DNA of 14,361 nucleotides from Thermoplasmatota archaeon (lineage in GTDB: Bacteria > Pseudomonadota > Gammaproteobacteria > Burkholderiales > Thiobacillaceae), in assembly GCA_023475455.1 (NCBI GenBank), contig JAMCVR010000144.1, forward strand, positions 17,054 through 31,414, in the 5' to 3' direction. Within the stretch, counting starts at the first letter, position 1. Each line of letters starts with the position of its first letter. Of the stretch, positions 3,045-11,955 are shown piece after piece. Under the pieces are notes generated by a model that did no database searches, was not told the origin of the DNA, and saw only the letters and a program-made list of their open reading frames with translations. Made by a program: the position numbers and the translations under genes.

Positions 3045-4772
3045 TCACAGGTCTTCGTCGAGACGCCGGCCATGCCGGATATTCAGCTGTTTGAGCTTGC
3101 GGTAGAGGTGGGTACGCTCCAGGCCGGATTTGTCGGCAACCCGCGTCATGCTGCCGCCTTCCTTCTGGATCAGGTGCTCGAAATACATGCGCTCGAAGGC
3201 GTCGCGCGCCTCGCGCAGCGGGATGTCGAGCGGGATGCCGTGGGCCACGGCGGGCGCCGCGTGCTTCATCGGGGCGAGCACGCGGTTGACGTCGACGGCG
3301 TCGATTTCGCTCGCCAGCGCGGTGACCGCCAGCGTGCGCACCACGTTGTTGAGCTGCGTCAGATTGCCCGGCCAGTCGAAGTTGCGCAGCTGGTTCAGGG
3401 CCGGCGTGGTCAGCCGCCGCACCGGGCAGACGCCCGCTTCGATCAGCTGCGCCAGCATGAAGTTGGCGATCTCGGGCACGTCTTCGCGATGCTCGCGCAA
3501 GGGCGGCACCTGGATGGCCAGGCTGGACAGACGGTAGAACAGGCGGCTGTCGAATTCGCCCGCCGCTACCATGGCGTCGAGGCTGCGGTTGCTGGCGCAC
3601 ACCAGACGCGCGCCGCTGCCTTCCATGCGGTCGAGCAGCAGTCCCAGGCCTTTCTGCTCCAGGCGTGCGAGCTCACAGGCATCCGGCAGATAGAGGGTGC
3701 CGTTGCCGAGCGCCTCGACAAAGCTCAGCGGGTCGGACACCAGGCGCGCGCGGTCCTTGATCTCGACCCACGGACTGCCGGGCTGATGCAGGAAATGGGC
3801 GCAGATTTCGAAGCCGCTGCCGGGCTCGCCCAACAGCAACACCGGCGCGGTGTTGCCGGCGATCTGGGTCAGGCGCTTTTTGAGTTCGAGAATCAGCGGG
3901 CTGCGGCCGAGCGCCGACAGGTCCATGCTGGGCGCGCGCCGGGGCAGGGCCACGCCGCGCTTGATCGCCTTGCCGACGGTGTCGATCAGCTTGGCCAGCG
4001 CTACCGGTTTTTCCAGGAAATCGGCCGCGCCGAGCTTGGTGGCTTCGACCGCGGTATCGATCGTGCCGTGGCCGGACATCATCACCACCGGCATGGTGAG
4101 CTGGCCGCCCCCCGCCCATTCCTTCAATAGCGTCACGCCGTCGGTGTCGGGCATCCAGATGTCGAGCAGGACCAGATCCGGGCGACGCGCTGCGCGAAAG
4201 GCCCGCGCCGCCTCGGCGTTTTCCGCCAGATGCACGTCGTAGCCCTCGTCGGTCAGGATTTCCGACAACAACTCACGAATGCCCAACAGCAACACCGGCG
4301 CGGTGTTGCCGGCGATCTGGGTCAGGCGCTTTTTGAGTTCGAGAATCAGCGGGCTGCGGCCGAGCGCCGACAGGTCCATGCTGGGCGCGCGCCGGGGCAG
4401 GGCCACGCCGCGCTTGATCGCCTTGCCGACGGTGTCGATCAGCTTGGCCAGCGCTACCGGTTTTTCCAGGAAATCGGCCGCGCCGAGCTTGGTGGCTTCG
4501 ACCGCGGTATCGATCGTGCCGTGGCCGGACATCATCACCACCGGCATGGTGAGCTGGCCGCCCCCCGCCCATTCCTTCAATAGCGTCACGCCGTCGGTGT
4601 CGGGCATCCAGATGTCGAGCAGGACCAGATCCGGGCGACGCGCTGCGCGAAAGGCCCGCGCCGCCTCGGCGTTTTCCGCCAGATGCACGTCGTAGCCCTC
4701 GTCGGTCAGGATTTCCGACAACAACTCACGAATGCCCACTTCGTCGTCGACGACGAGAATATGCCCGCTCAC
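3045..4772 (-). CDS. ntrX: Response regulator NtrX, with an in-frame internal duplication (575 aa as read; 424 aa if collapsed)
   Basis: NtrX is the response regulator partner of NtrY. The start is GTG (4772-4770), overlapping the ntrY stop as GTGA. The N-terminal receiver domain has the acidic pair D9/D10, phospho-acceptor D53 in LLDIWMPD, S82 and K104. A linker and the start of the AAA+ domain follow, then a C-terminal Fis-type helix-turn-helix (ADKSGLERTHLYRKLKQLNI). A 453-bp tandem duplication repeats residues 13-163 in frame, so the protein as read has a second receiver that lacks the first beta strand and its acidic pair. The usual length is about 425-460 aa, which the collapsed version matches. 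The AAA+ part is degenerate: GEPGSGFE in place of GExGxGKE, no GAFTGA, and GNGTLYLPD at Walker B. It may therefore bind DNA and be phosphorylated without activating sigma-54. Confidence 0.9.
   Translation of the reverse strand: MSGHILVVDDEVGIRELLSEILTDEGYDVHLAENAEAARAFRAARRPDLVLLDIWMPDTDGVTLLKEWAGGGQLTMPVVMMSGHGTIDTAVEATKLGAADFLEKPVALAKLIDTVGKAIKRGVALPRRAPSMDLSALGRSPLILELKKRLTQIAGNTAPVLLLGIRELLSEILTDEGYDVHLAENAEAARAFRAARRPDLVLLDIWMPDTDGVTLLKEWAGGGQLTMPVVMMSGHGTIDTAVEATKLGAADFLEKPVALAKLIDTVGKAIKRGVALPRRAPSMDLSALGRSPLILELKKRLTQIAGNTAPVLLLGEPGSGFEICAHFLHQPGSPWVEIKDRARLVSDPLSFVEALGNGTLYLPDACELARLEQKGLGLLLDRMEGSGARLVCASNRSLDAMVAAGEFDSRLFYRLSSLAIQVPPLREHREDVPEIANFMLAQLIEAGVCPVRRLTTPALNQLRNFDWPGNLTQLNNVVRTLAVTALASEIDAVDVNRVLAPMKHAAPAVAHGIPLDIPLREARDAFERMYFEHLIQKEGGSMTRVADKSGLERTHLYRKLKQLNIRHGRRLDEDL
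3828..4738. repeat. Tandem direct repeat 1 inside ntrX (period 453 bp, two copies)
   Basis: Copies 3828-4285 and 4281-4738 are identical over 458 bp on base-by-base reading, sharing the 5-bp junction GCCCA. The repeat lies wholly within ntrX and the period is a multiple of three, so the frame stays open. Identity stops abruptly at both ends (c/t at 3827 versus 4280; a/c at 4286 versus 4739). The abrupt ends and tiny microhomology fit either an unmerged contig overlap or a very recent duplication. Confidence 0.97.
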
Positions 4773-6901
4773 GTGCGCTCCCCGACTGCTGCGAAAACGG
4801 GCAGTGCGATGCGGATGGCGGCACCGCCTGATTTGAGGTTTTCGATCTGGATTTTACCGTGATGCTCTTCGACGATTTTCTTGACGATGGCCAGACCCAG
4901 ACCGGTTCCCTTGGCCTTGGTGGTTGCGTATGGCTCGAACAGCCGCGTCATCAGATGCTCCGGAAACCCGGCTCCATTGTCGGTTACGGTCAAACAAACT
5001 GCATGGTTGTTGAGGCGCGTGCTGACTTCGACACACGGTGCGGAGTGACCGGTCAGCGCATCCTGCGCATTTTGCAACAGATTATGTATCACCTGGCGCA
5101 ATAATGTGGAGTCGCCCGCAATGCGCGGCAAATCGGCATCGAGGTGCAGCTGCAATCCGAGGGCCCTGGCGTCATATAACGCCAGCACTTCGCGCACCAG
5201 CGCATTGAGGTCGAGCGCATCGAGCTTGGCACGCGGCATCCGCGCATAGCCGGCAAATGCGTCGACCATGCTTTTCATGGCGGCGACCTGGCTGACGATG
5301 GTTTGCGTGGCGCGCGCCAGAAACTCGGCGTCCGCCGCTTCCAGCCGCCCATCGAGCTTGCGCGCGATGCGCTCGGCCGACAGCTGGATCGGAGTGAGCG
5401 GGTTCTTGATCTCGTGCGCCAGCCGCTGCGCCACTTCGCTCCATGCGGCATTGCGTTCGGCATCGATCAGCTTGGTCACGTCGTCGAACACCAGCACGTA
5501 GCCACGTTCCACGCCCGGCGGCAGGCGGGTGCCGCGCAGCAGCAGCGACTGGTTGCCGCCGGGGCCGGCATAATCGACCTGCTCCTGCCATTCGCCTTCG
5601 TGCTCGCCGAAGTGCGCGGCCACCGTCGCGCCGAACGCGTGCAGGGCCTCGCCCGGCTGCCCCAGCCCGGCGAGCGGCCGGGTGTCGAGCGCAGCCGCGT
5701 CCACACCCAGAATCTGCGCCGCCGCGCTGTTCATCGTGCGCACCCGCAGGGCGTCGTCGAACACCACCACGCCGGACGACAGGTTGGCCAGCACCCGTTC
5801 GAGAAAGGCCTTAGCCTGCTCGGTCTGCTGATGGTTCCGCGCAACCTGTTCGCGCGCGTCGGAGAGCTGGCGGGTCATGCGGTTGAACGACTGGATCAGC
5901 ACGCCCAGCTCGTCGCGGCTTTTCACCGACGGCATCTGCGAGAAATCGCCCTTGGCCACCGCACGGGTGCCGCGCGCCAGCGAGCGCAGCGGCGCACCGA
6001 GGCGCTCCGACAGCAGATAGGCGATGACCAGGGTCATCAGCAAGGCCAGCATCAGCGTCAGCGTCAATGCGACGCCGTAGATACGCTTCAGCCCCAGCCG
6101 CGAGACCGCGATCTGCTGGTATTCCTGGTACGCCAGCTGCACCGCCTGCGCGTCGCGCGCCAGGCTGGCCGGCACCGGCTGCACCAGCTGCAGCACGCGC
6201 GTATCGCCGGCCAGTGAACTGGTATACACCGGCACGATGACGTGCATGACGAGACCGCGCTCGGGCACTTCCTCGATGCGGCTGTAGGGCTGCTGCTGCC
6301 GCACCTGCCACAGCACGCTGCGCTCGGGCAGCACCGGCAGCAGGGTGCCGCGCTCGCCGCTGACATGGGCGATCACGCCGCCGCGCTCGTCGAACAGCGT
6401 CAGTTCCTGCACCGCGCTTTGCTCGCGCAGGGTGGAGAGGCTGGTGATGATCGAGCCCATGCCTTCGTCCGACAGCGTCAGCGCCATGCGCTGCGCCTTT
6501 TTTTCCAGTTCGCGCAGCAGGTCGTCGAGCGCCGCCTGGCCGAGATTGACGCCGGAGGCCAGCGCGTTGTCGACCCGCACGTCGAACCAGGTTTCGATCG
6601 AACGATTGAGAAAGAACACCGAGGCGCCATATACGACCAGACCGGGCAGCATGGCGACGACGCCGAACATCGCCAGCAGCTTGAGCGTGAGCTTGGCGCC
6701 GAACACGCCGCGGCGGATGCGCTTTTGCAGCCACCACAGACGCCAGCCCAGCAGCACCAGCAGCGCCACCCCGAGCACGCCGCCGCCGACGAACAGGGTA
6801 GGCAGGGTGTCGGAGAATACGGCGCTGTCGCCGCTGGCATAAAACAGCAGCGTCAGCAGCGCGATGCCCATGATGAGGGCGGCGGCGATCAGACTGCGCA
6901 T
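4769..6901 (-). CDS. ntrY: Membrane sensor histidine kinase NtrY
   Basis: NtrY is a 710-aa inner-membrane histidine kinase that senses an unknown signal and phosphorylates NtrX. Hydrophobic segments lie near residues 4-20, 35-54 and 72-98. A periplasmic domain (about 100-275) follows, then a membrane segment at about 276-297, a HAMP domain (299-352), a PAS domain (about 365-480) and the kinase core. The core shows the H-box RLAHEIKNPLTP with H496, N-box HNLLQNAQDAL (606-616), G1 DNGAGF (641-646), F-box LFEPY (654-658) and G2 GTGLGL (665-670). All catalytic boxes look intact. The start is ATG 6901-6899, which overlaps the stop of the DUF4390 gene by one base (TGATG); an upstream in-frame ATG at 6979 lies inside that gene and is less likely. 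The stop overlaps the ntrX GTG start. Confidence 0.94.
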   Translation of the reverse strand: MRSLIAAALIMGIALLTLLFYASGDSAVFSDTLPTLFVGGGVLGVALLVLLGWRLWWLQKRIRRGVFGAKLTLKLLAMFGVVAMLPGLVVYGASVFFLNRSIETWFDVRVDNALASGVNLGQAALDDLLRELEKKAQRMALTLSDEGMGSIITSLSTLREQSAVQELTLFDERGGVIAHVSGERGTLLPVLPERSVLWQVRQQQPYSRIEEVPERGLVMHVIVPVYTSSLAGDTRVLQLVQPVPASLARDAQAVQLAYQEYQQIAVSRLGLKRIYGVALTLTLMLALLMTLVIAYLLSERLGAPLRSLARGTRAVAKGDFSQMPSVKSRDELGVLIQSFNRMTRQLSDAREQVARNHQQTEQAKAFLERVLANLSSGVVVFDDALRVRTMNSAAAQILGVDAAALDTRPLAGLGQPGEALHAFGATVAAHFGEHEGEWQEQVDYAGPGGNQSLLLRGTRLPPGVERGYVLVFDDVTKLIDAERNAAWSEVAQRLAHEIKNPLTPIQLSAERIARKLDGRLEAADAEFLARATQTIVSQVAAMKSMVDAFAGYARMPRAKLDALDLNALVREVLALYDARALGLQLHLDADLPRIAGDSTLLRQVIHNLLQNAQDALTGHSAPCVEVSTRLNNHAVCLTVTDNGAGFPEHLMTRLFEPYATTKAKGTGLGLAIVKKIVEEHHGKIQIENLKSGGAAIRIALPVFAAVGERT

Positions 6902-7524
6902 CAGGGCAGGGGCTGCGAGGAGGAGGGCGCGGCGGGCGCATCGAACGACCAGTCGAACCAGGGGGTGGCCAGTTCCCATTTGTCGCTGGTGACCGCGCCG
7001 ATGGACAGCGGCTTGGGCAATTGCGCGGTGTCGAGGCGCAAACGCAGGCGGGCGTCGTAGCGCTGTCCGGGTTTGAGCGCGCCGCGCTCCAGCACCTGCC
7101 AGTCGTCGACCCGTCCCAACAGGGCCAGCGCTTCGCCCAGGGTGGCGGCGGTCCGCGTGACGTAGCCCGACTCGACGACATAGCGGCGCAGCAGCAGATG
7201 GTAGTAAATCCGCATCTTGCGCACCGGCTCGGCCACGTCTTCGTCAAACCACCAGCTGCGCGGCCGGGTCAGTTCAAGTTCGAGCAGAAAATGCAGGTTG
7301 ATGCCCTTGGTCAAGGCATCTTCCAGCGTGCGGTTGAGCACGATGTCGACATCCGCATCCAGCACATAGCCTTGCGGCGCGGCCCGGATTTCGGCCCGTT
7401 TGATCGCGCTTTTGTCATTGGCCAGCGCGCTGCCCGCCGCGCCCAGCCAGCAGCCCAGCAGCAGCGCAGCCAGCCAGCGCAATGCCGGGTCAAGTCTTGC
7501 GCAGCAGGGCGTAAAAGAAACCAT
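6901..7524 (-). CDS. DUF4390 exported protein (complete copy)
   Basis: This 207-aa protein starts with a signal peptide (hydrophobic core LRWLAALLLGCWLGAAGSALA, ending near residue 35), so it is probably exported or anchored at the periplasmic face. The rest resembles the DUF4390 family commonly encoded directly before ntrY in betaproteobacteria, with FDEDVAEPVRKMRIYYHLLLR near residues 93-113 and DARLRLRLDTAQLP near 157-170. The function is unknown; its fixed place before ntrY suggests a link to the NtrY periplasmic sensor, which is inference. The start is ATG at 7524 (a second ATG lies one codon upstream). In the uncorrupted arrangement the start lies inside the 3' end of rsmB, here in a duplicated rsmB tail. 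As sequenced the frame stays open upstream through a partial second copy to 8190, giving a 429-aa ORF. Confidence 0.82.
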   Translation of the reverse strand: MVSFTPCCARLDPALRWLAALLLGCWLGAAGSALANDKSAIKRAEIRAAPQGYVLDADVDIVLNRTLEDALTKGINLHFLLELELTRPRSWWFDEDVAEPVRKMRIYYHLLLRRYVVESGYVTRTAATLGEALALLGRVDDWQVLERGALKPGQRYDARLRLRLDTAQLPKPLSIGAVTSDKWELATPWFDWSFDAPAAPSSSQPLP

Positions 7525-7684
7525 CATGCTCGGCATCGGGCAGCAGCGGCCCGTCGGACAAAGGTTCAGGAAGCGGACAGCGCTCGGCATCGCTTGCATG
7601 GCGCGCCAGGAACGCACGCACCTGGCCTTCGTTTTCTTCATCGAATATGGAGCAGGTGGCGTAAAGCAATGTACCACCCGGGGC
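7490..7684 (-). pseudogene. rsmB: Duplicated 3' tail of rsmB
   Basis: This matches the last part of rsmB (8156-8350), including the conserved end DGFFYALLRKT and the TGA at 7490-7492. It has no start and no methyltransferase domain, so it cannot make RsmB. It exists only because repeat 2 copies the rsmB/DUF4390 boundary. In the sequence as given it sits immediately before and overlapping the complete DUF4390 gene. Confidence 0.9.
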
Positions 7685-8190
7685 AATTGCGCGGTGTCGA
7701 GGCGCAAACGCAGGCGGGCGTCGTAGCGCTGTCCGGGTTTGAGCGCGCCGCGCTCCAGCACCTGCCAGTCGTCGACCCGTCCCAACAGGGCCAGCGCTTC
7801 GCCCAGGGTGGCGGCGGTCCGCGTGACGTAGCCCGACTCGACGACATAGCGGCGCAGCAGCAGATGGTAGTAAATCCGCATCTTGCGCACCGGCTCGGCC
7901 ACGTCTTCGTCAAACCACCAGCTGCGCGGCCGGGTCAGTTCAAGTTCGAGCAGAAAATGCAGGTTGATGCCCTTGGTCAAGGCATCTTCCAGCGTGCGGT
8001 TGAGCACGATGTCGACATCCGCATCCAGCACATAGCCTTGCGGCGCGGCCCGGATTTCGGCCCGTTTGATCGCGCTTTTGTCATTGGCCAGCGCGCTGCC
8101 CGCCGCGCCCAGCCAGCAGCCCAGCAGCAGCGCAGCCAGCCAGCGCAATGCCGGGTCAAGTCTTGCGCAGCAGGGCGTAAAAGAAACCAT
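7681..8190 (-). pseudogene. Partial second copy of DUF4390 gene, 3' end missing
   Basis: The first 170 codons of the DUF4390 gene (MVSFTPCC to LDTAQLP) match the codons of the complete copy at 7015-7524. The last 37 residues are missing. At 7680 the reading frame continues without a stop through 52 out-of-context codons (the rsmB tail read in the wrong frame) into the complete copy, so a gene caller may report one 429-aa protein. The intervening stretch has no family resemblance and is an artefact of the duplication. The start, at 8190-8188 inside the native rsmB 3' end, shows the natural arrangement of the rsmB/DUF4390 overlap. Confidence 0.85.
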
Positions 8191-9133
8191 CATGCTCGGC
8201 ATCGGGCAGCAGCGGCCCGTCGGACAAAGGTTCAGGAAGCGGACAGCGCTCGGCATCGCTTGCATGGCGCGCCAGGAACGCACGCACCTGGCCTTCGTTT
8301 TCTTCATCGAATATGGAGCAGGTGGCGTAAAGCAATGTACCACCCGGGGCCAGCAGCCGCCAGAGTGCCTCCAGCATAACGGCCTGCTGCGCGGCAAATT
8401 GAGCGATGTCGTCGGGACGGCGCAGCCATTTGATGTCGGGGTTGCGGCGCACCACGCCGGAGGCGCTGCACGGCACGTCGGCCAGGATGCGGTCGAACGG
8501 CCGGCCGTCCCACCAGGCGTCGGGCCGGGCGGCGTCGCCCTCGACCAGCGTGGCAGAGAGCTGGAGCCGGTCGAGATTTTCCCGCACCCGCGCCAGCCGC
8601 GCCGCATCGGCGTCGAGCGCGGTGAGATCCACATCGCACCCGCCAGGAGTACGCCGCCAGACGTTTATGCCCTTCGGGGTGCTCGCCCCTTGGGCGGTGC
8701 GTGGTTGTTGCCGATTGATCGGCTTTACAACCACGGCCTGCCCCTTGCGGGCGGTCTTGGCGCAGGCGCGCTCGAGAATATGGCCGGTCTTGCCGCCGGG
8801 CGCGGCGCAGGCATCCAGGACTCGCTCGCCCGGCTGCGCATCGAGCAGGCGCGCCGCCCACTGCGCGCCGGCATCCTGCACCGACACGTCGCCCCGGTCG
8901 AAGCCGGGCAGCGTGTGCACCGGCACCGCCTTGTCGAGGGTGACGGCGTCCGGGCCGGTCTGGTGCGCGGGCAGCCCGGCCTCGTTCAGGCGCCGCAGAT
9001 AACCCGCGACGTCGCCGTGGCGGCGATTGACGCGCAGGGTGAACGGCGGGTGCAGCAGGCTGGCTTCGAGGATGCCTTGCCAATGGTGCGGGTGTTCGGC
9101 TTGCAGTTTGGCGATCCACCAGTCGGGGTGCGA
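8156..9133 (-). pseudogene. rsmB: rsmB second partial copy carrying the native 3' end
   Basis: This stretch encodes 325 native RsmB residues in one frame, from SHPDWWIAKLQ through both catalytic cysteine motifs to the true C-terminus DGFFYALLRKT and a TGA at 8156-8158. It lacks the first 136 codons. Joined at the repeat to the upstream copy (10388-9981) it gives an intact 461-aa RsmB, so it is the downstream part of the real gene displaced by repeat 3. It also contains a second copy of the palindromic insertion (about 8636-8767). Confidence 0.88.
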
Positions 9134-9982
9134 CCTGGCCTTCGTTTTCTTCATCGAATATGGAGCAGGTGGCGTAAAGCAATGTACCACCCGGGGCCAG
9201 CAGCCGCCAGAGTGCCTCCAGCATAACGGCCTGCTGCGCGGCAAATTGAGCGATGTCGTCGGGACGGCGCAGCCATTTGATGTCGGGGTTGCGGCGCACC
9301 ACGCCGGAGGCGCTGCACGGCACGTCGGCCAGGATGCGGTCGAACGGCCGGCCGTCCCACCAGGCGTCGGGCCGGGCGGCGTCGCCCTCGACCAGCGTGG
9401 CAGAGAGCTGGAGCCGGTCGAGATTTTCCCGCACCCGCGCCAGCCGCGCCGCATCGGCGTCGAGCGCGGTGAGATCCACATCGCACCCGCCAGGAGTACG
9501 CCGCCAGACGTTTATGCCCTTCGGGGTGCTCGCCCCTTGGGCGGTGCGTGGTTGTTGCCGATTGATCGGCTTTACAACCACGGCCTGCCCCTTGCGGGCG
9601 GTCTTGGCGCAGGCGCGCTCGAGAATATGGCCGGTCTTGCCGCCGGGCGCGGCGCAGGCATCCAGGACTCGCTCGCCCGGCTGCGCATCGAGCAGGCGCG
9701 CCGCCCACTGCGCGCCGGCATCCTGCACCGACACGTCGCCCCGGTCGAAGCCGGGCAGCGTGTGCACCGGCACCGCCTTGTCGAGGGTGACGGCGTCCGG
9801 GCCGGTCTGGTGCGCGGGCAGCCCGGCCTCGTTCAGGCGCCGCAGATAACCCGCGACGTCGCCGTGGCGGCGATTGACGCGCAGGGTGAACGGCGGGTGC
9901 AGCAGGCTGGCTTCGAGGATGCCTTGCCAATGGTGCGGGTGTTCGGCTTGCAGTTTGGCGATCCACCAGTCGGGGTGCGACC
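8286..9982. repeat. Tandem direct repeat 3 inside rsmB (period 847 bp)
   Basis: Copies 8286-9135 and 9133-9982 match over 850 bp, sharing the 3-bp junction ACC. The period is not a multiple of three, so the duplication frameshifts rsmB. Sharp loss of identity outside the copies is seen at 8285/9132 (c/g) and 9136/9983 (t/a). Confidence 0.97.
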
Positions 9983-10388
9983 AGCGTGCGGACGGCAGTT
10001 CGGCCGCGATTTTTTCCAGTTCGGCGCGGCGGCGCTGGAAGTTGCGCAGCACCGCGTTGGTGAGCCCGCGCCGCCAGCCCGGTCCCGCCGCGGTGACGGC
10101 GTTGTGCACCACGGCGTGCGCCGGCGCGCGGGTGTAGGCCAGCTGATACAAGGCCACGCGCAGCAGCCGGCCGAGTTCGGGATCGGTCAGCGGGCGTTCC
10201 AGCAGCGCCGCCAGCCAGGCGTCCAGGCGCCCCAGCTGGCGCAGGCTGCCGTACACGATGTCCTGCAGGGCGCCGCGCTCGCCCGGCGTTTGCAACTGCT
10301 GCAGGATGCGGGGCAGCACCTGATGCAGCGCCGCGCCGGCGAGCACCTCTTCCAGCGCGCCGGCGGCCAGTTTTTGCAGCTTACGCAT
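8304..10388 (-). CDS. rsmB: 16S rRNA m5C967 methyltransferase RsmB, frameshifted by tandem duplication
   Basis: RsmB (Sun/Fmu) uses S-adenosylmethionine to make 5-methylcytidine at position 967 of 16S rRNA. Residues 1-130 form the NusB-like RNA-binding domain, followed by the RsmB/NOP methyltransferase domain with the SAM motif LDACAAPGGKTGHILE, motif IV DVPCSASGVVRRNPDIKW and motif VI YATCSIFDEEN holding the catalytic cysteine. From ATG 10388 the native frame holds for 419 residues to ENEGQV. It then crosses a repeat junction whose 847-bp period shifts the frame, adding about 275 meaningless residues (694 aa in all) and losing the native last 42. Removing one repeat copy gives 461 aa ending at 8156. 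Even that is longer than E. coli RsmB (429 aa), because about 42 residues are inserted after HILE. The start overlaps the fmt end by 8 bp, with GGAG 11 bases upstream. Confidence 0.88.
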   Translation of the reverse strand: MRKLQKLAAGALEEVLAGAALHQVLPRILQQLQTPGERGALQDIVYGSLRQLGRLDAWLAALLERPLTDPELGRLLRVALYQLAYTRAPAHAVVHNAVTAAGPGWRRGLTNAVLRNFQRRRAELEKIAAELPSARWSHPDWWIAKLQAEHPHHWQGILEASLLHPPFTLRVNRRHGDVAGYLRRLNEAGLPAHQTGPDAVTLDKAVPVHTLPGFDRGDVSVQDAGAQWAARLLDAQPGERVLDACAAPGGKTGHILERACAKTARKGQAVVVKPINRQQPRTAQGASTPKGINVWRRTPGGCDVDLTALDADAARLARVRENLDRLQLSATLVEGDAARPDAWWDGRPFDRILADVPCSASGVVRRNPDIKWLRRPDDIAQFAAQQAVMLEALWRLLAPGGTLLYATCSIFDEENEGQVAPRLVDRQTASRTPAPLARHPRSQPAAPAVHPARQSPPRRRRGLSAAPERGRAARAPDRPGRRHPRQGGAGAHAARLRPGRRVGAGCRRAVGGAPARCAAGRASPGCLRRARRQDRPYSRARLRQDRPQGAGRGCKADQSATTTHRPRGEHPEGHKRLAAYSWRVRCGSHRARRRCGAAGAGAGKSRPAPALCHAGRGRRRPARRLVGRPAVRPHPGRRAVQRLRRGAPQPRHQMAAPSRRHRSICRAAGRYAGGTLAAAGPGWYIALRHLLHIR
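9483..9614. repeat. Palindromic in-frame insertion element in rsmB (also at about 8636-8767)
   Basis: About 130 bp inside the RsmB methyltransferase domain encodes a stretch (CAKTARKGQAVVV... to ...TPGGC) absent from E. coli RsmB, where HILE is followed after about six residues by the next beta strand. The core is a strong hairpin at 9547-9582: CGTGGTTG pairs with CAACCACG and GCCGAT with ATCGGC, with a two-base loop and a small internal loop. On the coding strand the ends look like imperfect inverted repeats (CGCCTGCGCCAAGACCGCC at the left; GGCGG and TGGCGGGTGCG at the right). It has no coding capacity of its own. It resembles a REP-type or RPE-like palindromic element that inserted without breaking the frame; the family is not identified. 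Confidence 0.6.
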
Positions 10389-10650
10389 GAGGGGGCACGC
10401 TCCGGTTGGCCTTCCGGTTCATGTAGCGGCCGAGACGCGTGCCCGCTGCCAGCGGCCGTCCGGCGAGAAACGCCGCAGCGAGCATCCGTTTGCCGCCCGC
10501 CGGCTGGACCTCCTGCAAGGCGAGCGCACCTTTGCCGCAGGCGACGACCAGTTGCTCCGCGTCGGCGCGCAGCACCATGCCCGGCACATACGATCTTTCA
10601 CGCGCTTCAGCCCGTAGAAAGTCGGCGTCCTTTAGGGCGCCGATCCCGCC
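10381..10650 (-). pseudogene. fmt: Duplicated 3' end of fmt
   Basis: This is a copy of the last part of fmt (10942-11202), encoding PGMVLRADAEQL through the end NRKANRSVPPHA and the TAA at 10381-10383. It lacks the catalytic N-terminal domain. It arises from repeat 4 and sits directly before the rsmB start at 10388, which is why rsmB still has its natural upstream sequence. Confidence 0.9.
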
Positions 10651-10949
10651 GCGGTGACGGCGTTGTGCACCACGGCGTGCGCCGGCGCGCGGGTGTAGGC
10701 CAGCTGATACAAGGCCACGCGCAGCAGCCGGCCGAGTTCGGGATCGGTCAGCGGGCGTTCCAGCAGCGCCGCCAGCCAGGCGTCCAGGCGCCCCAGCTGG
10801 CGCAGGCTGCCGTACACGATGTCCTGCAGGGCGCCGCGCTCGCCCGGCGTTTGCAACTGCTGCAGGATGCGGGGCAGCACCTGATGCAGCGCCGCGCCGG
10901 CGAGCACCTCTTCCAGCGCGCCGGCGGCCAGTTTTTGCAGCTTACGCAT
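10632..10949 (-). pseudogene. rsmB: Duplicated 5' end of rsmB, truncated
   Basis: This has the same start as rsmB (MRKLQKLAAGALEEVL) and covers the NusB-like N-terminal domain for about 102 residues up to NAVTAAG. It then crosses the repeat 4 junction and meets a stop after three foreign residues (105 aa in all). It has no methyltransferase domain. Its ATG overlaps the end of the complete fmt by 8 bp. Confidence 0.9.
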
Positions 10950-11955
10950 GAGGGGGCACGCTCCGGTTGGCCTTCCGGTTCATGTAGCGGCCGAGACGCG
11001 TGCCCGCTGCCAGCGGCCGTCCGGCGAGAAACGCCGCAGCGAGCATCCGTTTGCCGCCCGCCGGCTGGACCTCCTGCAAGGCGAGCGCACCTTTGCCGCA
11101 GGCGACGACCAGTTGCTCCGCGTCGGCGCGCAGCACCATGCCCGGCACATACGATCTTTCACGCGCTTCAGCCCGTAGAAAGTCGGCGTCCTTTAGGGCG
11201 CCGGTCCCGCCCACCGCCTGCGCGGACCAGATTTTCAGCGGTGCGCCGTCCAGCAGCGTCCACGCGCCGGGCGTCGGATTGTAGGCGCGCACCGCGCGCG
11301 CCAGCGCCTCGGCGGGCTGGCGCCAGTCCAGTTGCGCCTCCTCCTTGCTGAGTTTGGCGGCATAGGTGGCCTGGCTGTCGTCCTGCGCCACCGGCACCAG
11401 CGTGGCGATATTCGCCAGCGCCGCCACGATGGCGGCCGCGCCCGCTGCCGCCAGGGCGTCGTGCAGGCTGGCCGCGGTGTCGCTGTCGCCGATCGGCACG
11501 ACGGTTTTTGCAAGCATCGCCCCGGTGTCGAGCCCGGCATCCATCCGCATGATGGTGATGCCGGTTTCCGTGTCGCCCGCCAGGATCGCCCGCTGGATCG
11601 GCGCCGCCCCGCGCCAGCGCGGCAGCAGCGAAGCATGGATGTTGAGGCAGCCGAAGCGCGGCAGGTCCAGCACCGCCTGCGGCAAAATCAATCCGTAGGC
11701 CGCGACCACCATGACGTCGGCGTCGGCTGCGGCGAGTTCGGCCTGCGCCTCGGGCGTTTTCAGGCTGGCGGGCTGGTATACCGGCAGCCCGCGCGCCAGC
11801 GCCGCCTGCTTGACCGCGCTGGGGGCGAGCTTCATGCCGCGCCCGGCCGGGCGGTCGGGCTGGGTCAGCACCAGGGCGATGTCGCGCCCCGCATCCGCCA
11901 GGGCATCGAGGGCGGCGGCCGCAAACGGCGGGGTGCCGGCAAAAATGACGCGCAC
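10942..11955 (-). CDS. fmt: Methionyl-tRNA formyltransferase
   Basis: Fmt transfers the formyl group from 10-formyl-tetrahydrofolate to methionyl-initiator tRNA in the cytoplasm. The 337-aa protein is complete: MRVIFAGTPPFA at the start, then the formyl-transferase core with N105 and H107 in NIHASLLPRWRGAAPIQ and D143 in MDAGLDTGAM, matching the catalytic Asn-His-Asp triad, and a C-terminal tRNA-binding OB-like domain (about 205-337). The start is GTG at 11955-11953, eight bases after the def stop; no strong Shine-Dalgarno is visible, so coupling to def is likely. E. coli Fmt is 315 aa. Much of the extra length is an insertion of about 15 residues (within GGTGALKDADFLRAEARERS) between KIWSAQ and PGMV, encoded by palindromic DNA. 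The def-fmt-rsmB order is widely conserved. Confidence 0.95.
   Translation of the reverse strand: MRVIFAGTPPFAAAALDALADAGRDIALVLTQPDRPAGRGMKLAPSAVKQAALARGLPVYQPASLKTPEAQAELAAADADVMVVAAYGLILPQAVLDLPRFGCLNIHASLLPRWRGAAPIQRAILAGDTETGITIMRMDAGLDTGAMLAKTVVPIGDSDTAASLHDALAAAGAAAIVAALANIATLVPVAQDDSQATYAAKLSKEEAQLDWRQPAEALARAVRAYNPTPGAWTLLDGAPLKIWSAQAVGGTGALKDADFLRAEARERSYVPGMVLRADAEQLVVACGKGALALQEVQPAGGKRMLAAAFLAGRPLAAGTRLGRYMNRKANRSVPPHA
11156..11202. repeat. Palindrome-rich in-frame insertion in fmt (copy at 10595-10641)
   Basis: Two adjacent hairpins lie in the fmt coding region. The first, 11156-11182, pairs CTTTCACGCGCT with AGCCCGTAGAAAG, with one bulge and one mismatch. The second, 11185-11202, is GGCGTCCTTTAGGGCGCC, a near-perfect palindrome. 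They encode the residues that are extra relative to E. coli Fmt. This looks like a small REP-type insertion; the family is not identified. Confidence 0.5.

What the first reader, a model, noticed from the sequence alone, without database searches (positions are those of the whole stretch)
3828..11211. Four long direct tandem duplications in 7.4 kb, arranged like unmerged contig overlaps
Periods are 453, 666, 847 and 561 bp, with junction microhomology of only 5, 4, 3 and 11 bp. The window can be written as five pieces (to 4285; 4281-7684; 7681-9135; 9133-10650; 10640 onward), each overlapping the next by 458-850 bp in content. Repeats 2 and 3 overlap, so 65 bp occurs three times. Deleting one copy of each restores four normal full-length genes. 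Four independent near-identical duplications damaging neighbouring housekeeping genes would be remarkable biology; misassembly of overlapping contigs is the simpler reading.
Basis: partly seen in the sequence, partly recalled or inferred. Interest (0 to 1): 0.75.

Follow-up and report, generated by a model that had tools for sequence, protein, structure and literature searches.

The report
Overlapping contigs misjoined in Thiobacillus sequence
Four stretches of a Thiobacillus-like chromosome segment appear twice in a row, most likely because overlapping pieces of sequence were glued together without removing the shared part, so this is very probably a computer or laboratory artefact rather than biology.

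Summary
In detail: four exact head-to-tail direct duplications in 7.4 kb (periods 453, 666, 847, 561 bp) with one odd base, at 10643. The window is a Thiobacillus-like housekeeping segment. Relatives that could be measured are single-copy: across duplication 1, 47 of 54 have exactly the single-copy 458 bp and none the window's 911; across duplications 2+3, 24 of 42 have exactly the single-copy spacing once a 129-bp insert is allowed for, and none comes near the window's 2968. Exact direct repeats above 87 bp: 0 of 80 loci. No 575-aa NtrX or 694-aa RsmB is among the 120 best hits listed for each. Cut at the junctions, piece 3 (1455 bp) has no sequence of its own. Best reading: tiling pieces were joined at chance 3-11-bp matches while their true 458-850-bp overlaps were missed. 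Blunt concatenation does not fit the microhomology (chance about 1.5e-5). Only rsmB is broken. In-vitro chimeras and in-vivo template switching are weaker rivals; reads would decide. By-product: an in-frame palindromic element in rsmB, one of a dispersed family.

The parts
3828..4285 (.). D1 copy 1 (458 bp, period 453), inside ntrX (minus strand)
4281..4738 (.). D1 copy 2; junction match 4281-4285
3045..4772 (-). ntrX, 575-aa frame with two Response_reg domains; the 120 relatives listed have 416-425 aa (575 - 151 = 424)
7015..7684 (.). D2 copy 1 (670 bp, period 666), DUF4390 5' part plus rsmB 3' end
7681..8350 (.). D2 copy 2; junction match 7681-7684
6904..7677 (-). complete DUF4390-protein copy
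   Evidence: tblastn with the 258-aa frame of L005, residues 1-258; PF14334 positions 4-161 of 161
8286..9135 (.). D3 copy 1 (850 bp, period 847), inside rsmB
9133..9982 (.). D3 copy 2; junction match 9133-9135; breaks the rsmB frame
9132..10388 (-). rsmB residues 1-376 of 418 (numbering of L028), then out of frame; residues 137-418 lie in another frame at 9133-8159
10079..10650 (.). D4 copy 1 (572 bp, period 561), rsmB 5' end plus fmt 3' end
10640..11211 (.). D4 copy 2; junction match 10640-10650 (10 of 11), odd base A at 10643
10942..11955 (-). fmt, complete
7681..9135 (.). piece 3 of the five-piece reading: 1455 of 1455 bases also present in other pieces
7620..7684 (.). 65-bp stretch present three times (also 8286-8350 and 9133-9197)

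Best explanation
The four duplications are not in the organism's chromosome; they are joins made while the sequence was put together. Five pieces from one strain tile this locus and overlap by 458, 670, 850 and 572 bp. The overlaps were not recognised, and neighbouring piece ends were joined at chance 3-11-bp matches. A gap-closing or scaffolding step would do this when the true gap is negative and it only looks for short overlaps. Each missed overlap then appears as a tandem duplication. Shown: exact repeats, short matches at every junction, redundancy of pieces 3 and 4, single-copy structure in the relatives measured. Inferred: that the joining was done by software, and by which route.
For: Exact repeats with one odd base, at a junction. 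Single-copy spacing in relatives: of 80 loci, 54 gave both flanks of D1, and 47 have exactly 458 (= 911 - 453), the other 7 at 439-452. 42 of 80 gave both flanks of D2+D3, and 24 have exactly 1326 (= 2968 - 666 - 847 - 129 for the rsmB insert), range 1294-1395. 0 of 80 loci (1,493,267 bases) has an exact direct repeat longer than 87 bp. The 120 listed NtrX relatives (of 8000 scored) are 416-425 aa and the 120 listed RsmB relatives (of 8000 scored, 7995 of them matching) are 417-436 aa. Piece 3 is wholly redundant, piece 4 all but 108 bp by 40-mers, and pieces 2 and 4 overlap each other by 65 bp. All four overlaps are 458-850 bp and no shorter one is seen, as expected if shorter true overlaps were merged correctly and only longer ones were missed (inference).
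Against: No Ns or other scaffold marks. Exact overlaps of 458-850 bp are easy for most overlap assemblers (general knowledge). [quoted passage not shown] The microhomology excludes simple blunt concatenation and needs a joiner that uses very short matches; my one paper search on gap-closing errors listed 2 papers, neither about this error by title or abstract start. The D4 spacing test is inconclusive because that spacing varies among relatives. No reads, coverage or assembler name were available.
Confidence: 0.74

Rival explanations
1. Chimeric molecules made in vitro (phi29 multiple displacement amplification or a similar amplification): a displaced 3' end re-annealed a few hundred bases back by a short match, and the low-diversity amplified library was assembled faithfully.
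For: Short junction matches are typical of MDA chimeras: among direct joins under 10 kb in an E. coli single-cell reaction 90.9% had 2 bp or more of complementarity (PMC1855051, passages); among inverted chimeras of human DNA over 95% of overlaps are 3-13 nt, peak 7 (PMC5372508, passages). The excess over chance here is significant.
Against: MDA chimeras are mostly inverted: 406 of 475, with only 11 of 475 direct and under 10 kb (PMC1855051); about 70% inverted in human data (PMC4595205, passages). Here all 4 are direct and there is no shared inverted 25-mer. All four are backward jumps within 7.4 kb. The 80-280-nt jump preference of PMC5372508 was measured on inverted chimeras only, so the 453-847-bp size here is only a weak argument.
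Confidence: 0.13
2. Real tandem duplications in the chromosome of this strain, from one microhomology-mediated replication accident with several backward template switches, or from separate events.
For: Microhomology at the junctions exceeds chance. There is a stray substitution at junction 4. Three of four periods are multiples of three and three of four duplications leave complete or in-frame genes, so the cell could be viable. The D4 breakpoints lie in somewhat more foldable sequence.
Against: No trace in the relatives measured or among 240 listed proteins, though a strain-specific event would leave none there. In Salmonella, spontaneous duplications were deduced to be true at junction matches of 11 bp or more: 5 of 8 tested were verified, the 7- and 9-bp ones were negative, and so was one of 17 bp (PMC3411829, passages); three junctions here have 3-5 bp. 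Exact repeats of 450-850 bp should recombine away (general knowledge). Three or more of four periods divisible by three has a chance of about 0.11 (own arithmetic), so it is no evidence of selection. Breakpoints of D1-D3 are not unusually foldable.
Confidence: 0.1

Closest known systems
False segmental duplication by 'duplicated overlapping contigs' (Kelley and Salzberg 2010, PMC2864568; passages seen)
   Same: Neighbouring pieces share the same sequence at their ends and are both kept, so the overlap looks like a recent duplication.
   Different: There the cause is two divergent haplotypes and the contigs stay separate; here the copies are identical, without Ns, and joined at 3-11-bp matches inside one continuous sequence.
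phi29 MDA chimeras (PMC1855051, PMC5372508, PMC4595205; passages seen)
   Same: Short matching sequence at the junctions; joined parts lie close together in the genome.
   Different: MDA chimeras are mostly inverted; all four here are direct.
Spontaneous rearrangements in bacteria (PMC3411829; passages seen)
   Same: Direct copies with a short direct match at the ends.
   Different: The duplications verified there had matches of 11 bp or more; here three are 3-5 bp, and four lie within 7.4 kb.

Membership tests
Duplicated overlapping contigs (assembly artefact) | adjacent pieces with identical overlapping ends | tested here: met
   suffix-prefix overlaps 458, 670, 850 exact; 572 bp with two differing positions due to one base
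Duplicated overlapping contigs (assembly artefact) | merging the overlap gives the structure of relatives (D1, D2, D3) | tested here: met
   D1 spacing in 47 of 54 and D2+D3 spacing in 24 of 42 relatives equals the single-copy value, 129-bp insert allowed for; judged from spacings, no merged sequence was made
Duplicated overlapping contigs (assembly artefact) | merging the overlap gives the structure of relatives (D4) | tested here: inconclusive
   spacing varies: 30 of 43 relatives at 491-719 bp around the single-copy 572, 13 of 43 at 959-1512, window 1133; no exact repeat above 87 bp in any of the 80 loci
Duplicated overlapping contigs (assembly artefact) | pieces held as separate contigs with a gap between | tested here: not met
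   no N in the window
Duplicated overlapping contigs (assembly artefact) | mate pairs or read depth fit better after merging | not testable with these tools
   no reads available
MDA chimera | short match at junctions | tested here: met
   5, 4, 3 and 10 of 11
MDA chimera | mostly inverted joins | tested here: not met
   4 of 4 direct; no shared inverted 25-mer
MDA chimera | amplified library | not testable with these tools
   origin of the window unknown; no genome held for it
Spontaneous chromosomal tandem duplication | junction match of about 11 bp or more (cut-off deduced in PMC3411829) | tested here: not met
   three of four junctions have 3-5 bp; the fourth 10 of 11
Spontaneous chromosomal tandem duplication | junction present in DNA molecules | not testable with these tools
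   no reads; junction 1 absent from viral contigs, which is not a fair test for a chromosome

The most novel reading that the evidence does not exclude
One replication accident in a living Thiobacillus cell made four successive backward template switches of 450-850 bp at 3-11-bp microhomologies, all direct, within 7.4 kb: a bacterial counterpart of MMBIR-type complex rearrangement. It left most genes usable and broke only rsmB.
Probability: 0.06. Interest if true: 0.55.

Novelty: not a real feature. Interest (0 to 1): 0.12.

Why it matters
If left unflagged, the window would yield false gene calls: a two-receiver NtrX, a split RsmB and extra DUF4390 and Fmt fragments. It also suggests a signature of such joins: overlaps above about 450 bp, joins at a few matching bases, and a piece with no sequence of its own. 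If the duplications were real, they would be an unusually clean case of serial template switching in a bacterium.

Tried and rejected
Blunt concatenation of contigs: rejected on microhomology (the null is drawn from this window itself). Foldable breakpoints: with RNA energy parameters, 80-base stretches around the 9 points of D1-D3 are ordinary (33-95% of 570 background positions at least as stable); the 3 points of D4 are among the more stable 3-13%, so this is not excluded there. Selection for in-frame duplications: chance about 0.11 (own arithmetic), so not evidence. Other sources holding the window: no match in the plasmid collection; junction 1 absent from viral contigs. Rfam: no match at gathering score. 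Paper searches for MDA with tandem duplication and microhomology (0 papers), metagenome tandem-duplication artefacts (4 listed), long-read assembly errors (20 listed of 85) and gap-closing errors (2 listed) showed nothing describing this pattern in their titles and abstract starts; the papers cited came. Size argument: under a log-uniform 0.1-10 kb prior, all four periods in 450-850 has probability 4e-4, but the prior is mine and I do not lean on it.

Full report
What is there. The window (14,361 bp, 67% G+C, no N) contains four exact head-to-tail direct duplications: 3828-4285/4281-4738 (period 453), 7015-7684/7681-8350 (666), 8286-9135/9133-9982 (847) and 10079-10650/10640-11211 (561). About 2.5 kb of paired sequence has one odd base, A at 10643, inside the shared match of junction 4, where both outer copies have G. 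A 65-bp stretch occurs three times. No other exact direct repeat of 25 bp or more and no shared inverted 25-mer was found.

Where it comes from. Best matches name trkH, trkA, ntrX, rsmB, fmt and def (trkH and the duplicated ntrX score below NCBI's cut-offs) and DUF4390. The LysM match is weak; 'ntrY' for the sensor kinase beside ntrX and 'dprA-like' for the partial last gene are my naming. The kinase finds 261 relatives in the genome collection, of which the best 80 were kept (49-93% identity, many titled Thiobacillus). The species is not known. No whole genome is held for the window and no plasmid matches, so depth, reads and the rest of the assembly could not be examined.

What the duplications do to genes. 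ntrX is one 575-aa frame with two receiver domains; the 120 relatives listed have 416-425 aa, and 575 minus 151 is 424. fmt is complete (residues 1-322 of 323 of L028 at 11955-10990) with an extra 3' fragment. DUF4390 has a complete copy at 7677-6904 and an extra partial one. rsmB starts at 10388 but runs out of frame after residue 376 of 418 (L028 numbering), because the period 847 is not a multiple of three. So one gene, not four, is broken.

Relatives. Flank spacing was measured in every locus of the 80 that gave both flanks in the right orientation; the others were dropped. Across D1 (54 of 80 usable) the window has 911 bp; 47 of 54 relatives have exactly 458 (911 - 453) and the other 7 have 439-452. 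Across D2 and D3 (42 of 80 usable) the window has 2968; 24 of 42 have exactly 1326, which is 2968 - 666 - 847 - 129, the 129 being an in-frame insert in this strain's rsmB (43 residues); the full range is 1294-1395. Across D4 (43 of 80 usable) the spacing varies: 30 of 43 lie at 491-719 around the single-copy 572, and 13 of 43 lie at 959-1512, the window having 1133, so distance alone does not decide D4. Among the 80 loci (1,493,267 bases), exact direct repeats of 40 bp or more occur in 4, none longer than 87 bp. No 694-aa RsmB appears among the 120 relatives listed. Both protein lists were capped at the best 120.

How it most likely arose. Cut at the junctions, the window is five pieces. Piece 3 (7681-9135) has no base of its own, piece 4 (9133-10650) has 108 by 40-mers, and pieces 2 and 4 overlap each other by 65 bp. 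That is what tiling contigs or reads look like when laid side by side without merging. The joins are not blunt: among 300,000 random pairs of points 400-900 bp apart in the window, microhomology of 3, 4, 5 and 7 bp or more has frequency 0.075, 0.029, 0.011 and 0.0014, and four junctions as rich as these (5 + 4 + 3 + 7) have a chance of 1.5e-5. A step that closes a negative gap by accepting short matches would explain both the duplicated overlaps and the short matches; this step is inferred, not shown.

Rivals. MDA chimeras also have short matches at their junctions, but are mostly inverted (406 of 475; only 11 of 475 direct and under 10 kb; PMC1855051, passages; about 70% inverted in PMC4595205, passages). 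All four here are direct. The overlap-length and jump-size figures of PMC5372508 (passages) are for inverted chimeras only and weigh little. In Salmonella, spontaneous duplications were deduced to be true at matches of 11 bp or more (5 of 8 tested were verified; PMC3411829, passages); three junctions here have 3-5. Against my own reading: Kelley and Salzberg note that duplications inside one contig are rarely mis-assembled (PMC2864568, passages), there are no Ns, exact overlaps this long are normally easy to merge, and D4 lies in somewhat more foldable sequence.

By-product. The 129-bp insert in rsmB belongs to a dispersed palindromic family of Thiobacillus-like genomes. An 18-residue (54-bp) form sits at two different places of RsmB in relatives (436-aa versions). 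A 27-base core pattern, up to 3 mismatches, has 31 places in 6 genomes, with none for the reversed control. Each of the 30 places fetched lies in an open stretch of 275-1008 codons (weak evidence in G+C-rich DNA, and some places are neighbours). Of the 10 frames given to Pfam (of 30), 8 match known families: CoaE (2), the two CoaBC domains (1), DUF3418 of HrpA-type helicases (3), an MFS transporter (1) and a nuclease-like domain (1). This resembles Rickettsia palindromic elements, which are about 150 bp (PMC10969869, passages). Two paper searches listed nothing on such an element in Thiobacillus. It lies inside the D3 unit, in both copies, so it predates duplication 3; I see no link to how the four duplications arose.

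Verdict. The artefact reading is supported with an amendment about how the joins were made. Reads or PCR are needed to settle it.

Noticed in passing
window 8636-8766 (second copy 9483-9613), inside rsmB: A 129-bp in-frame insert (43 residues) in RsmB, strongly self-folding as RNA (z -3.2, 1 of 200 shuffles as stable). The 5 relatives aligned lack it, apart from a related 21-bp stretch at another place in L006. By eye it is a 54-bp palindromic element with a second repeat of about 55 bp nested in it.
   Followed up: partly
P0121, P0122, P0126 versus P0139, P0193, P0218 (and partial in P0156): RsmB of relatives carries an 18-residue insert at two different sites with two different peptide readings of what looks like the same element (the frame difference is inferred from the peptides), so the gene seems to have been invaded at least twice without losing its frame.
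   Followed up: partly
It resembles Rickettsia palindromic elements but is shorter; nothing on it was listed in the searches. This may deserve its own study.
   Followed up: partly
L081-L100 (genome of L028): A second repeat of about 55 bp, the part nested in the window's rsmB insert, occurs at many other places of that genome, by eye often beside other repeat units.
   Followed up: partly
L004 (JAIBEL010000067.1): Record titled Rhizobium sp., but its NtrY-like kinase is 89% identical to the one in this window and its DNA aligns along most of the window: probably a mislabelled or contaminated bin.
   Followed up: no
between fmt and rsmB in relatives such as L004, L007, L009-L011, L013, L027, L078: 13 of 43 relatives have about 0.4-0.9 kb more between the D4 flanks than the single-copy spacing (959-1512 bp against 572), so another element or gene may sit there in some lineages.
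   Followed up: no
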